The position numbers and the translations under genes are program-made. Under the pieces are notes generated by a model. It did no database searches. It was not told the origin of the DNA and worked only from the letters and a program-made list of their open reading frames with translations. This document shows, piece by piece, positions 1 through 45,409 of a stretch of DNA of 64,000 bases; position 1 is the first letter of the stretch, and each line of letters begins with the position of its first letter. This DNA is from Chaetoceros tenuissimus (taxonomy: Eukaryota > Bacillariophyta > Thalassiosirophyceae > Chaetocerotales > Chaetocerotaceae), in the NCBI GenBank assembly GCA_021927905.1, contig BLLK01000022.1:2480001-2544000 (forward strand), written 5' to 3'.

Positions 1-2199
1 GGTACCGTGAGCTGTGTGAATGTGGATGCCGATCCAGTGACATTGTGTGCAGAGCTTGGAGCGACAGTATCAGTAGGTACTTTGCTCACAGTCTATGATG
101 CTTGCTGCGAATGTAAGCTACAAAGTGCAGCACCAAGTCTTTCTATTGCTCCTTCGACTGCGCCTAGTGTAAGCTCTGCTCCATCAGCATGTGTCTCCGA
201 CAATACCTTGCCATTTGTAAGCTTGAGTCTAGGTACCGTGAGCTGTGTGAATGTGGATGCCGATCCAGTGACATTGTGTGCAGAGCTTGGAGCGACAGTA
301 TCAGTAGGTACTTTGCTCACAGTCTATGATGCTTGCTGCGAATGTAAGCTACAAAGTGCAGCACCAAGTCTTTCTATTGCTCCTTCGACTGCGCCTAGTG
401 TAAGCTCTGCTCCATCAGCATGTGTCTCCGACAATACTTTGCCATTTGTAAGCTTGAGTCTAGGTACCGTGAGCTGTGTGAATGTGGATGCCGATCCAGT
501 GACATTGTGTGCAGAGCTTGGAGCGACAGTATCAGTAGGTACTTTGCTCACAGTCTATGATGCTTGCTGCGAATGTAAGCTACAAAGTGCAGCACCAAGT
601 CTTTCTATTGCTCCTTCGACTGCGCCTAGTGTAAGCTCTGCTCCATCAGCATGTGTCTCCGACAATACCTTGCCATTTGTAAGCTTGAGTCTAGGTACCG
701 TGAGCTGTGTGAATGTGGATGCCGATCCAGTGACATTGTGTGCAGAGCTTGGAGCGACAGTATCAGTAGGTACTTTGCTCACAGTCTATGATGCTTGCTG
801 CGAATGTAAGCTACAAAGTGCAGCACCAAGTCTTTCTATTGCTCCTTCGACTGCGCCTAGTGTAAGCTCTGCTCCATCAGCATGTGTCTCCGACAATACT
901 TTGCCATTTGTAAGCTTGAGTCTAGGTACCGTGAGCTGTGTGAATGTGGATGCCGATCCAGTGACATTGTGTGCAGAGCTTGGAGCGACAGTATCAGTAG
1001 GTACTTTGCTCACAGTCTATGATGCTTGCTGCGAATGTAAGCTACAAAGTGCAGCACCAAGTCTTTCTATTGCTCCTTCGACTGCGCCTAGTGTAAGCTC
1101 TGCTCCATCAGCATGTGTCTCCGACAATACCTTGCCATTTGTAAGCTTGAGTCTAGGTACCGTGAGCTGTGTGAATGTGGATGCCGATCCAGTGACATTG
1201 TGTGCAGAGCTTGGAGCGACAGTATCAGTAGGTACTTTGCTCACAGTCTATGATGCTTGCTGCGAATGTAAGCTACAAAGTGCAGCACCAAGTCTTTCTA
1301 TTGCTCCTTCGACTGCGCCTAGTGTAAGCTCTGCTCCATCAGCATGTGTCTCCGACAATACCTTGCCATTTGTAAGCTTGAGTCTAGGTACCGTGAGCTG
1401 TGTGAATGTGGATGCCGATCCAGTGACATTGTGTGCAGAGCTTGGAGCGACAGTATCAGTAGGTACTTTGCTCACAGTCTATGATGCTTGCTGCGAATGT
1501 AAGCTACAAAGTGCAGCACCAAGTCTTTCTATTGCTCCTTCGACTGCGCCTAGTGTAAGCTCTGTTCCATCAGCATGTGTCTCCGACAATACCTTGCCAT
1601 TTGTAAGCTTGAGTCTAGGTACCGTGAGCTGTGTGAATGTGGATGCCGATCCAGTGACATTGTGTGCAGAGCTTGGAGCGACAGTATCAGTAGGTACCTT
1701 GCTCACAGTCTATGATGCTTGCTGCGAATGTAAGCTACAAAGTGCAGCACCAAGTCTTTCTATTGCTCCTTCGACTGCGCCTAGTGTAAGCTCTGCTCCA
1801 TCAGCATGCGTCTCCGACAATACCTTGCCATTTGTAAGCTTGAGTCTAGGTACCGTGAGCTGTGTGGATGTGGATGCCGATCCAGTGACATTGTGTGCAG
1901 AGCTTGGTGCGACAGTATCAGTAGGTACCTTGCTCACAGTCTATGATGCTTGCTGCGAATGTAAGCTACAAAGTGCAGCACCAAGTCTTTCTATTGCTCC
2001 TTCGACTGCGCCTAGTGTAAGCTCTGCTCCATCAGCATGTGTCTCCGACAATACTTTGCCATTTGTAAGCTTGAGTCTAGGTACCGTGAGCTGTGTGGAT
2101 GTCGATGCCGATCCAGTGACAATGTGTGCAGAGCTTGGAGCGACAGTATCAGTAGGTACTTTGCTCACAGTCTACGATGTGTGTTGTGGTTGCAAATGA
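1..2199 (+). CDS. Cys-rich/PS-rich tandem-repeat protein, 3' part
   Basis: The frame is open from the first base, so the start codon lies upstream of the window and only the C-terminal 732 codons are seen. The protein is nine full copies plus a final partial copy of a 77-residue module. Each module has a beta-rich-looking part with six Cys (SCVNVDADPV, CAEL, YDACCECK, SACVSDN) and a linker rich in Ser/Pro/Ala (APSLSIAPSTAPSVSSAPS). Such PSxxPS linkers are common in secreted and cell-wall-associated diatom proteins, so an extracellular, disulfide-linked filamentous or adhesive protein is a reasonable inference, but no signal peptide is visible here. The last copy diverges and ends YDVCCGCK-stop at 2197-2199. 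I do not recognise a named family. Confidence 0.8.
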   Translation, partial: GTVSCVNVDADPVTLCAELGATVSVGTLLTVYDACCECKLQSAAPSLSIAPSTAPSVSSAPSACVSDNTLPFVSLSLGTVSCVNVDADPVTLCAELGATVSVGTLLTVYDACCECKLQSAAPSLSIAPSTAPSVSSAPSACVSDNTLPFVSLSLGTVSCVNVDADPVTLCAELGATVSVGTLLTVYDACCECKLQSAAPSLSIAPSTAPSVSSAPSACVSDNTLPFVSLSLGTVSCVNVDADPVTLCAELGATVSVGTLLTVYDACCECKLQSAAPSLSIAPSTAPSVSSAPSACVSDNTLPFVSLSLGTVSCVNVDADPVTLCAELGATVSVGTLLTVYDACCECKLQSAAPSLSIAPSTAPSVSSAPSACVSDNTLPFVSLSLGTVSCVNVDADPVTLCAELGATVSVGTLLTVYDACCECKLQSAAPSLSIAPSTAPSVSSAPSACVSDNTLPFVSLSLGTVSCVNVDADPVTLCAELGATVSVGTLLTVYDACCECKLQSAAPSLSIAPSTAPSVSSVPSACVSDNTLPFVSLSLGTVSCVNVDADPVTLCAELGATVSVGTLLTVYDACCECKLQSAAPSLSIAPSTAPSVSSAPSACVSDNTLPFVSLSLGTVSCVDVDADPVTLCAELGATVSVGTLLTVYDACCECKLQSAAPSLSIAPSTAPSVSSAPSACVSDNTLPFVSLSLGTVSCVDVDADPVTMCAELGATVSVGTLLTVYDVCCGCK
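1..2199 (+). repeat. 231-bp coding tandem repeat array (9.5 copies)
   Basis: Copies begin at 1, 232, 463, 694, 925, 1156, 1387, 1618, 1849 and 2080, each with GGTACCGTGAGC. Units 1-7 differ at only one or two bases. A C/T difference in ACAATACC/TTTGCC (about 197 bp into each unit) reads C,T,C,T,C,C,C,C,T through units 1-9, so units 1-2 and 3-4 look like a repeated 462-bp dimer. Differences pile up in units 8-10, the 3' edge, as expected when unequal exchange homogenises the middle of an array. The array runs out of the window at its 5' side. Confidence 0.97.
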
Positions 2200-42421: not shown

Positions 42422-42847
42422 TTTAGATGTTTCAACTGAATTTTATGACACGGTCAGTGTGATGAAGTGATTGGATGGCCTTGGAAAATCCAAAGAAAAT
42501 CTTGTGCCGGAATTTGATTCTCGAAAAGAGTCAGTCGGCAAAGTTAGAGTGACGATCGCAAAAGTGGTTATCGAACGGTTTCAAAGTACCCCTACTTGAC
42601 AGGGATACTAATGTATGTATTTTTCTGAAATTGTCACGCGTGGAATGCAACAAAGCCATCCATGAAGATCCACACATCAATCCTTCTCATCTGTTGAATC
42701 CAGTCAACACCTACTACGTGTAATTACATTTTATAATCTGAGACTGGAAAAAGTTATTCATTTCTACAGACCTGATACATCCTGATACATCAGTCTTGAA
42801 TAGCAAGCTTTGTATCGCATCTTGAAAAGTACAGGAAAGAACGAAAA
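42422..42847. other. Divergent promoter region
   Basis: Separates the NEET-like gene (minus) and the WW/Q-rich gene (plus). A short direct repeat, CCTGATACAT twice, lies at 42771-42791. Nothing else was seen. Confidence 0.4.
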
Positions 42848-45409
42848 ATGAAATTTAGAGTAGCAGCTTTATCTTTGCTCATTGGCTCCACATGTAATGT
42901 TGGAGGTGTATCTGCCAACTCTAATGCTGGAAACTATGGATACTATGGAAATCATCCTCAACAAGTACAGAATCAGCAACAAGGATATTACAATCAGAAT
43001 CAGTATTATGGACAACAGCAGCAGAGATACGATATGCAGCAACAACAACAACAACAGCAGCAAGGAAATTATCACCAACAGGGATATGAACAAGAAGTTG
43101 CAGCTGATGAGGATCTCGACAAAGAAGTAAATGTAGACAGTAAACAAGAAGCAGAGGATGAATTACCTCCACTTCCTGAAGGTTGGACCGAGTATATTGA
43201 TCCAAGTAGTGGTCGACCATATTATTATAACTCAATTGACGGAACCACAACTTGGGAAAGACCTGTTGCTGAGGAAAAAACATCTCCAGAGGCTGAAGAA
43301 GTCCAGAATGATGTTCCTGAAGAAGTTCAATGTGAAAAGATTGTAGAAGAAGAAGCGCAAGAAGGCACAAATGTAGATGCAGAGCAAATGCAAAATTCAT
43401 ATTCAAACTACGATGAGTATCAGCCAGATGAACAAAACTCTGAAGGTGTAGTGAAAGAACAACCTGAACAGACGACAGTAGAAGATGATTCCACACAGGA
43501 GAAGGAACAAAATGCAGATAACAACGACCAAGTTGATTATGATAATTACAATCGTGATGAATATGACCAGTATAATCAGCAGGAAAGACATCCAAGTGGT
43601 CAAAAGAATCATTCTTATGATCGTAACGCTCATCAGCATCAAGGAGGATGGGGTATGCCACCAAAGGAGCAAGCAGGATGGGGTATGCCACAAAATCAGA
43701 ATTGGAATCAAAAAGTGCAAGGAAATCAACAAAAGCAGGAAGACAAGATTGATCAAAACGAAGAAAAGCAAGCTTGGGGTCAGCCTGAACCAAAGTTTAA
43801 TCAAAGGGAAGAACAATCTCGACCAAAATATGGAGGTAATGATCAGGCACATCAACAGCAGTCATGGCAAAATGATGGTCGAATGCAGCAGCAAAAGCAT
43901 GAAGAGGAAAGACGCGATATAGAGAAGAGAGAAGCACCTCGTCCACAACAGCAGCAACAGATGGAGAGATCAAGTCAATGGGGAGTTCCACCTCCTCAAC
44001 AAAAACAATGGGGTCCAAAGTCTGAAGAGGCCCCTCGTTCTGAACCAAACAAGCAGGCACAACAGTTCCAGCAACAAACTTGGGGAAGACCAGCTCCTGA
44101 AAATATGCCACCGCAGCAACAGCAACATCGTAGACCAGATCAGTCAGAGAATAACCAGCGACCACCTCATTACCAGCAGAGTGCAGAACAACAGTGGCGT
44201 GGACAACCTCCTCAGCAGCATCAGTATGGAAGACCTCCAATGCAAGAACCTCCGAAACCAGAAGAAGCAAAGAAGGAAGAACCGAAAGAAGAAGAGAGTA
44301 AGCCTGGAATTTTTGGGTCACTGTTTGGAAAGAAAGAAGAAGAAGAAGAAGCTCCAAAACCTGAAGAGCCAAAGAGTCCACCTCCATTTCAGCCACGCCA
44401 TCCACCACAAAAAGAAAGACCGCAGCCTGTACCTCAACAACCTAGTCAAGGTATGAATGCACCACCGCAGGGACAGCAAGGACCACCACCTCAATGGAAT
44501 AGACCTCCACAACCAAATCAAGGTATGCAAAAGCAAGCGCCACCACAGAGACAACAGGGACCTCCTCCCCAATTCGGGCAACAGCAGCCGCGTCAACAAC
44601 CACCACAAGGAGGACCGTATGGTCAGAGACCTCCACAGTATGGACAGCAAGCTCCTCCACAATCTCCTGGTGGGCAGCTTCAGCCATATAATCCACAACA
44701 ACAAGAAAGTTCTATCAAATCTGCGTTCGGAAATGCATGGCAAGGTGTTCTTGGTTTTAGTGAAAAGGCAAAAAGTACAGCGACACAATACAAAGATATT
44801 GCTGTGCAGGAGGCTAGTAGGGTTGGTGAAACCGTGAGTACTCAAAGTGCAGGGATTCTTGGCAGAGTTCGAGCACAAGCTCAAAACTTGCAGAAGAATT
44901 TCTTTGAAGGTGGTGATCAACACGGCCAACAATCAGGGTCTTACTCAATGTCTCCTTATGGCAGCGCTCCACCAGTAGGAGGCGCAGGTCCAAATCAGAA
45001 TTATGGAGGTCCTCCACAAGGATATACTCCACCTGGTCCAAGAGTAAATCAACCTTATCCACATCAAGGTCGTGTACCTCCCCAAGGTCAGCAGAGGCCA
45101 CAAATGCAAAGTCAATATGGACAGCAGCAGCAATACCAGCAAAGACCACCACAACAAGGTCAAATGCCTAGAGGTCAAGCACAGCAAGGATACCCAGGCC
45201 CTCGTGGTTTACCTCCGCAAGGCCAACAGAGGCCACAAATGCAAAGTCAATATGGACAGCAGCAGCAATATCAGCAAAGACCACCACAACAAGGACAAAT
45301 GGAGCGAAATCAACCACAGCAAGGACAAATGAGAGGCCCTCCTCAGCAACAGCAACAGAGATCTCCTCAAACTGATCCATGGTCGCATCCTGGTTTGGAA
45401 GGATTCTAG
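42848..45409 (+). CDS. Secretory Gln/Pro-rich protein with a WW domain
   Basis: A single exon of 853 residues. MKFRVAALSLLIGSTCNVGGVSA is a signal peptide. A Gln/Tyr-rich tract follows, then at about 100-140 a standard WW domain (LPPLPEGWTEYI, GRPYYYN, TTTWERP), which binds Pro-rich peptides. Two WGMP motifs come next, then long Gln/Pro/Gly/Glu-rich sequence, a KEEPKEEESKPGIFGSLFGK segment repeated in outline, an amphipathic helix region at about 615-680 (FGNAWQGVLGFSEKAKSTA) and direct Gln/Pro repeats at the end. A WW domain with a signal peptide is unusual, since most WW proteins are cytosolic or nuclear. It could assemble with itself through its own PPxQ tracts in a secretory compartment. 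The exact role is unknown. Confidence 0.82.
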   Translation: MKFRVAALSLLIGSTCNVGGVSANSNAGNYGYYGNHPQQVQNQQQGYYNQNQYYGQQQQRYDMQQQQQQQQQGNYHQQGYEQEVAADEDLDKEVNVDSKQEAEDELPPLPEGWTEYIDPSSGRPYYYNSIDGTTTWERPVAEEKTSPEAEEVQNDVPEEVQCEKIVEEEAQEGTNVDAEQMQNSYSNYDEYQPDEQNSEGVVKEQPEQTTVEDDSTQEKEQNADNNDQVDYDNYNRDEYDQYNQQERHPSGQKNHSYDRNAHQHQGGWGMPPKEQAGWGMPQNQNWNQKVQGNQQKQEDKIDQNEEKQAWGQPEPKFNQREEQSRPKYGGNDQAHQQQSWQNDGRMQQQKHEEERRDIEKREAPRPQQQQQMERSSQWGVPPPQQKQWGPKSEEAPRSEPNKQAQQFQQQTWGRPAPENMPPQQQQHRRPDQSENNQRPPHYQQSAEQQWRGQPPQQHQYGRPPMQEPPKPEEAKKEEPKEEESKPGIFGSLFGKKEEEEEAPKPEEPKSPPPFQPRHPPQKERPQPVPQQPSQGMNAPPQGQQGPPPQWNRPPQPNQGMQKQAPPQRQQGPPPQFGQQQPRQQPPQGGPYGQRPPQYGQQAPPQSPGGQLQPYNPQQQESSIKSAFGNAWQGVLGFSEKAKSTATQYKDIAVQEASRVGETVSTQSAGILGRVRAQAQNLQKNFFEGGDQHGQQSGSYSMSPYGSAPPVGGAGPNQNYGGPPQGYTPPGPRVNQPYPHQGRVPPQGQQRPQMQSQYGQQQQYQQRPPQQGQMPRGQAQQGYPGPRGLPPQGQQRPQMQSQYGQQQQYQQRPPQQGQMERNQPQQGQMRGPPQQQQQRSPQTDPWSHPGLEGF
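45077..45301 (+). repeat. 135-bp period direct repeat in the WW/Q-rich gene
   Basis: A 90-bp block at 45077-45166 recurs at 45212-45301 with a few silent changes (it codes the QGQQRPQMQSQYGQQQ element). This is a recent in-frame internal duplication in the Gln/Pro-rich tail. Confidence 0.85.

What the first reader, a model, noticed from the sequence alone, without database searches (positions are those of the whole stretch)
1..2199. Almost identical 231-bp coding repeats with a dimeric higher-order period
Seen directly: nine full 77-residue modules plus a partial one are nearly base-for-base identical, and a silent C/T marker alternates in units 1-4, suggesting 462-bp dimers as the unit of exchange. 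Six Cys per unit plus PS-rich linkers point to an extracellular, possibly fibrous, protein. Length variation between strains is likely.
Basis: partly seen in the sequence, partly recalled or inferred. Interest (0 to 1): 0.72.

Follow-up and report, generated by a model that had tools for sequence, protein, structure and literature searches.

The report
Repeat-built secreted diatom surface protein
The window opens inside a diatom gene for a large secreted, cysteine-rich protein whose second half is one 77-residue block copied about 16 times almost letter for letter; this is a common way for cell-surface proteins to be built, though the protein family itself has no name in the databases searched.

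Summary
The repeat is real and larger than reported. The window starts inside it; in the genome it has 15 full 231-bp units plus a terminal partial 16th (C16:2478570-2482199), in one open frame. I reconstructed a four-exon gene (1,694 aa) with a signal-peptide-like N-terminus, four six-Cys domains, a Pro/Thr/Ser-rich linker, then the array, ending directly after the last module. So 'extracellular, Cys-rich, PS-linked' is supported. The 462-bp dimer is not: the C/T marker reads CCCTCTTCTCTCCCC(T) over the whole array, no more alternating than chance (P 0.13-0.32). Variants cluster at the 3' end, which fits unequal exchange of single units. Two paralogous genes on another contig carry older arrays of related modules. 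All modules appear to descend from a six-Cys domain (C.D...C...C...ACC.CGG) with 180 motif hits in this genome and no match in Pfam or PDB. The genome is a diatom's; size and G+C fit Chaetoceros tenuissimus. The likeliest reading is a secreted cell-wall or matrix protein enlarged by recent unit turnover. Copy number and exact unit identity depend on the assembly and were not tested in reads. Overall: a new member of a known kind, of moderate interest.

The parts
1..186 (+). 3' part of unit 7 of the array; the gene begins upstream of the window (exons C16:2476867-2477254, 2477337-2478205, 2478290-2478337, 2478420-2482199)
187..2034 (+). Units 8-15, each 231 bp / 77 aa: six-Cys core ACVSDN..C..C..CC.C plus a P/S/A-rich linker
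   Evidence: unit starts 187, 418, 649, 880, 1111, 1342, 1573, 1804
2035..2199 (+). Terminal unit 16: core only, most divergent (15 differences from consensus in 165 bp, stop codon included), ends DVCCGCK-stop; no C-terminal transmembrane or GPI-type tail
207..2055 (+). Synonymous C/T marker (position 21 of each unit) at 207, 438, 669, 900, 1131, 1362, 1593, 1824, 2055: C T C T C C C C T

Best explanation
A diatom nuclear gene for a secreted, disulfide-rich, modular wall or matrix protein of about 172 kDa. It has a signal peptide, four N-terminal C.D..F.F..C.WI..C..C..C domains, a Pro/Thr/Ser-rich linker, and 16 tandem copies of a six-Cys module at the extreme C-terminus. Proposed mechanism: the N-terminal domains bind the cell surface or its polymers. 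The array is a long chain of compact disulfide-bonded beads on P/S linkers that acts as an acidic, multivalent spacer or adhesive. The array grew from one module shared with its paralogs and is kept uniform by unequal crossing-over or gene conversion in single-unit steps, with purifying selection on the protein. Shown: architecture, paralogy, homogeneity in the assembly, excess of synonymous differences. Inferred: secretion, disulfide pairing, wall location, adhesive or spacer role, exchange mechanism.
For: The reconstructed gene has canonical GT-AG introns and an N-terminal hydrophobic peak of 2.2-2.6. Two paralogs on C27 share the same order: signal-like start, C.WI domains, PTS linker, modules, stop after CC.CK. 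Modules of C16 form one clade (100/99) nested among C27/C21 modules. The module profile matches a broad ACC.CGG domain profile (hhalign 97%, E 3e-11), a motif with 180 hits against 0 in the reversed control. N-terminal domain: 128 hits at E<=1e-5. Differences between units: 11 synonymous, 6 nonsynonymous, against 26% synonymous sites (P 0.0008). Units 1-13 nearly identical while divergence sits at the 3' end. No Arg and no RXL processing site in the array, so it should stay one chain.
Against: No expression, proteomic or localisation data. No SignalP-type prediction was available. The single-sequence structure model is poor (pLDDT 51.7), so the bead fold and disulfides are not shown. The selection test rests on 17 differences, mostly in unit 16, and these are not fully independent. 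Homogeneity could be overstated by the assembly.
Confidence: 0.68

Rival explanations
1. The near-identity and copy number are partly artefacts: a hybrid assembler tiled short-read sequence over noisy long reads, so unit order, the C/T marker series and the number of units are unreliable.
For: If this is C. tenuissimus NIES-3715, it was built by MaSuRCA from 300-bp MiSeq reads plus MinION reads and then merged with HaploMerger2 (PMC8613185). Units of 231 bp cannot be placed by 300-bp reads. Variants lie near the unique 3' flank, where reads can be anchored. Another P/S repeat array of this genome (C18, L040) has out-of-frame stretches that look like indel errors.
Against: 16 units with no indel and an open frame throughout; units 1-2, anchored by the unique 5' flank, are also pure consensus; paralogs carry tandem arrays too, so an array as such is expected. 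The species assignment itself is inferred.
Confidence: 0.2
2. Dimers of 462 bp are the unit of exchange.
For: C/T alternates over units 3-6 and 7-12.
Against: Not significant on the full array (P 0.13-0.32); only one site carries the signal; the other variants (126T>C in units 14-15, 64A>G in 15-16) are shared by adjacent units, as with single-unit steps.
Confidence: 0.07
3. The array protein is a rapidly changing recognition or defence factor (cell-cell or sexual recognition, or binding of viruses or grazers), not mainly structural.
For: Secreted Cys-rich multigene family with unit turnover, a pattern known from surface proteins under variable selection (general knowledge).
Against: Units are uniform and constrained rather than diversified: differences are mostly synonymous. 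No data on ligand or expression.
Confidence: 0.1

Closest known systems
Pleuralins (HEPs) of Cylindrotheca fusiformis
   Same: Diatom wall proteins with a proline-rich region followed by tandem repeats of a ~90-aa domain rich in P, S, C and D (PMC4557024)
   Different: No credible sequence match to any PDB chain; pleuralins have variable C-terminal domains after the repeats, this gene ends at the array; no N-terminal C.WI domains described for pleuralins in the source read
Frustulins (ACR domains)
   Same: Acidic, Cys-rich ~50-aa domains in diatom wall proteins; the module here is acidic too (pI 4.05)
   Different: No frustulin sequence could be compared here; Ca binding untested; the protein lacks RXL motifs, which are reported at repeat ends in frustulins, cingulins and silacidins (PMC4557024)
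Intragenic tandem-repeat surface proteins such as yeast FLO1/FLO11 flocculins
   Same: Near-identical in-frame repeats in a secreted surface protein, a source of length variation (papers found)
   Different: Flocculin repeats are Ser/Thr-rich and the proteins are GPI-anchored (general knowledge); here each repeat is a six-Cys module and there is no anchor tail
ShK/ShKT domain (PF01549)
   Same: The N-terminal C.D...C.W...C...C..C..C domains have a similar Cys/Trp pattern
   Different: Only one of 10 members reaches a weak ShK match (E 0.048); the repeat modules do not match at all

Membership tests
Pleuralin / PSCD | Sequence homology to the PSCD domain | tested here: inconclusive
   Module, module-family and broad-family searches of all PDB chains gave no credible hit up to E 10. 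That a pleuralin structure is in that set is from memory, and no pleuralin sequence was aligned directly.
Pleuralin / PSCD | N-terminal Pro-rich region followed by multiple P/S/C/D-rich repeats | tested here: met
   Linker 21% P, 22% T, 30% S; module 7.8% P, 16.9% S, 7.8% C, 5.2% D
Pleuralin / PSCD | Located in pleural bands, released only by HF | not testable with these tools
   Needs localisation and extraction
Frustulin | Acidic Cys-rich ACR domains binding calcium | not testable with these tools
   Acidic and Cys-rich is met in composition; ACR sequence and Ca binding not compared
ShKT domain (PF01549), for the N-terminal domains | Match above the Pfam cut-off | tested here: not met
   Best E 0.048 in one of 10
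ACC.CGG six-Cys domain family (defined here) | Conserved C.D, C, C, ACC.C pattern with profile-level similarity | tested here: met
   hhalign 97.2%, E 3.2e-11 over 56 columns; six Cys shared; the GGG after CC.C is lost in the array modules
Secreted protein | N-terminal signal peptide | tested here: inconclusive
   Hydrophobic core 2.2-2.6 (Kyte-Doolittle) and AVA|K site; no trained predictor available

The most novel reading that the evidence does not exclude
An unnamed diatom six-Cys domain family (ACC.CGG), present in well over a hundred copies in one genome, includes array genes whose unit number turns over within the lifetime of a species, giving strain-specific lengths of a surface protein that tune adhesion or recognition.
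Probability: 0.2. Interest if true: 0.6.

Novelty: new member of a known kind. Interest (0 to 1): 0.36.

Why it matters
It shows recent, in-frame unit turnover in a secreted diatom protein and ties it to a large Cys-rich domain family that has no Pfam model. If the wall or matrix location holds, the array length is a natural, easily typed variable for asking how diatoms tune their surface.

Tried and rejected
Pfam on the window ORF gave FBPase (E 8e-9), Plasmod_MYXSPDY and HTH_66: rejected, because the score is summed over identical repeats, no single stretch passes, and one module alone has no match. The PDB hit lipoyltransferase (E 2) is chance. Dimer period: rejected by permutation. The profile link between modules and the N-terminal C.WI domains is weak (hhalign 31.5% and 83.9%, only the first 25 columns) and is not claimed as homology. 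IMG/VR scan with the module profile: no relative; scans with the broad profile could not be run. AlphaFold on one unit: pLDDT 51.7, so no fold search was made. Literature searches found no description of the domain, in the held open-access library only.

Full report
Observation. Tandem Repeats Finder gives one array at window 1-2179, period 231, 9.4 copies, 99% matches and no indels; it lies in an open frame 1-2199 that runs off the window start. The window is C16:2480001-2544000 of a 41.03-Mb genome in 68 contigs. In the genome the array has 15 full units starting at C16:2478570 and a terminal partial unit (165 bp with the stop codon) ending at C16:2482199; a 5' linker identical to the consensus precedes unit 1. 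Mean identity among full units is 99.46%, 99.71% for units 1-13, minimum 97.8%, with 31 of 105 pairs identical. There are no Ns in the stretch.

Dimer claim. Position 21 of the unit is the only polymorphic site in units 1-12. Its series is CCCTCTTCTCTCCCC, plus T in unit 16. Permutation gives P 0.29-0.32 for the number of runs and 0.13-0.18 for the longest alternation. Other variants (126T>C in 14-15, 64A>G in 15-16) are shared between neighbours, and differences pile up towards the 3' end. This is the picture expected from single-unit unequal exchange with a less homogenised edge (inference).

Gene. Upstream of the window I joined four exons with GT-AG introns (C16:2476867-2477254, 2477337-2478205, 2478290-2478337, 2478420-2482199), giving 1,694 aa, 172 kDa, pI 4.3. 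It starts MNIFRKIEKANLLVCIIITILSITHLRFAVA|KEE, a signal-peptide-like stretch. Four C.D..F.F....C.WI....C...C...C..C domains follow, then a 76-aa linker with 73% P, T and S, then the array. It ends directly after the last CCGCK, with no hydrophobic tail, so no GPI or membrane anchor is evident. The array holds 96 of 123 Cys and no Arg; the whole protein has no RXL motif. The splice model is mine and has no transcript support.

Relatives. Two genes on C27 (about 131.7-135.9 kb and 148.5-152.3 kb, minus strand) have the same order of parts, and a fragment lies on C21. C27 gene B has 246-bp units with dS up to 0.8 among units 1-7 (three of them nearly identical); C27 gene C has two units at dS 0.05 and two old ones. 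In a protein tree the C16 units form one clade (100/99) nested among the B and D modules. So the C16 array most likely grew from one module after the split; similar expansions, of different age, happened in the paralogs. Gene B carries an N-V-S glycosylation sequon in most linkers; the C16 units have none.

Wider family. Modules with the same six Cys but a CGGG end occur in many other genes of the genome. The profile of the C16, C27 and C21 modules matches a profile of these (hhalign 97.2%, E 3.2e-11). The codon pattern for ACC.CGG occurs 180 times against 0 for the reversed pattern. The N-terminal domain gives 128 matches at E<=1e-5. Neither has a Pfam match at a meaningful level nor a PDB match.

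Constraint and age. Against the consensus, unit differences are 11 synonymous and 6 nonsynonymous where 26% of sites are synonymous (binomial P 0.0008); most come from unit 16 and they are not fully independent, so this is support, not proof, for purifying selection. Synonymous divergence among units 1-13 is about 0.9%. The genome is a diatom's (PF03842 silicon transporters). Its size, 41.0 Mb, and the window's G+C, 39.4%, fit Chaetoceros tenuissimus NIES-3715 (41.0 Mb, 38.9%, heterozygosity 1.56%; PMC8613185); this is an inference, as contig counts differ (68 against 85). If so, units 1-13 are more alike than two average alleles, and length variation in the population is likely.

Assembly caveat. 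That assembly was a MaSuRCA hybrid of 300-bp MiSeq and MinION reads, reduced to a haploid set. Short reads cannot place single units, so the order of the C/T marker, exact copy number and degree of identity need raw long reads. An out-of-frame stretch in another P/S array (C18, L040) suggests that arrays here can hold errors, though real indels are not excluded.

Function. The best reading is a secreted, disulfide-rich, multivalent wall or matrix protein. It works like pleuralins or flocculins in architecture, but membership in any named family is not shown. The structure model of a lone unit was too poor to use.

Noticed in passing
L037:5840-6460 (C27, minus strand): Paralog gene B has a second, independent array of PVSTPNETPSGPVSTPVS-type repeats in its P/S/T linker, next to the six-Cys module array.
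   Followed up: partly
L040:1577-3844 (C18, minus strand): A PSDIPSDVPSDQPS repeat array with stretches in which the same repeat is read out of frame (FRHRCHQIFRQTYHLINH); either assembly indels or real frameshifts.
   Followed up: no
G000:C17:442278-446357 (-): Three silicon-transporter domain matches in tandem, all reported in a 1,459-aa open frame, the third with stops inside; possibly a fused or tandem SIT gene.
   Followed up: no
G000 genome-wide, e.g. C14:1327498-1344813, C13:1526261-1531987, C27:82364-85118: Clusters of ACC.CGG six-Cys domains (180 motif hits in the genome) without any Pfam model: a large family of P/S-linked Cys-rich proteins with no description found.
   Followed up: partly
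L037 linkers (C27 gene B): N-V-S glycosylation sequon in most units of paralog B; none in the C16 units (KLQS instead of KNVS).
   Followed up: partly
window 45075-45325: A 135-bp repeat (1.9 copies, 89%) in a Gln-rich, signal-peptide-like ORF (42800-45406, +).
   Followed up: no
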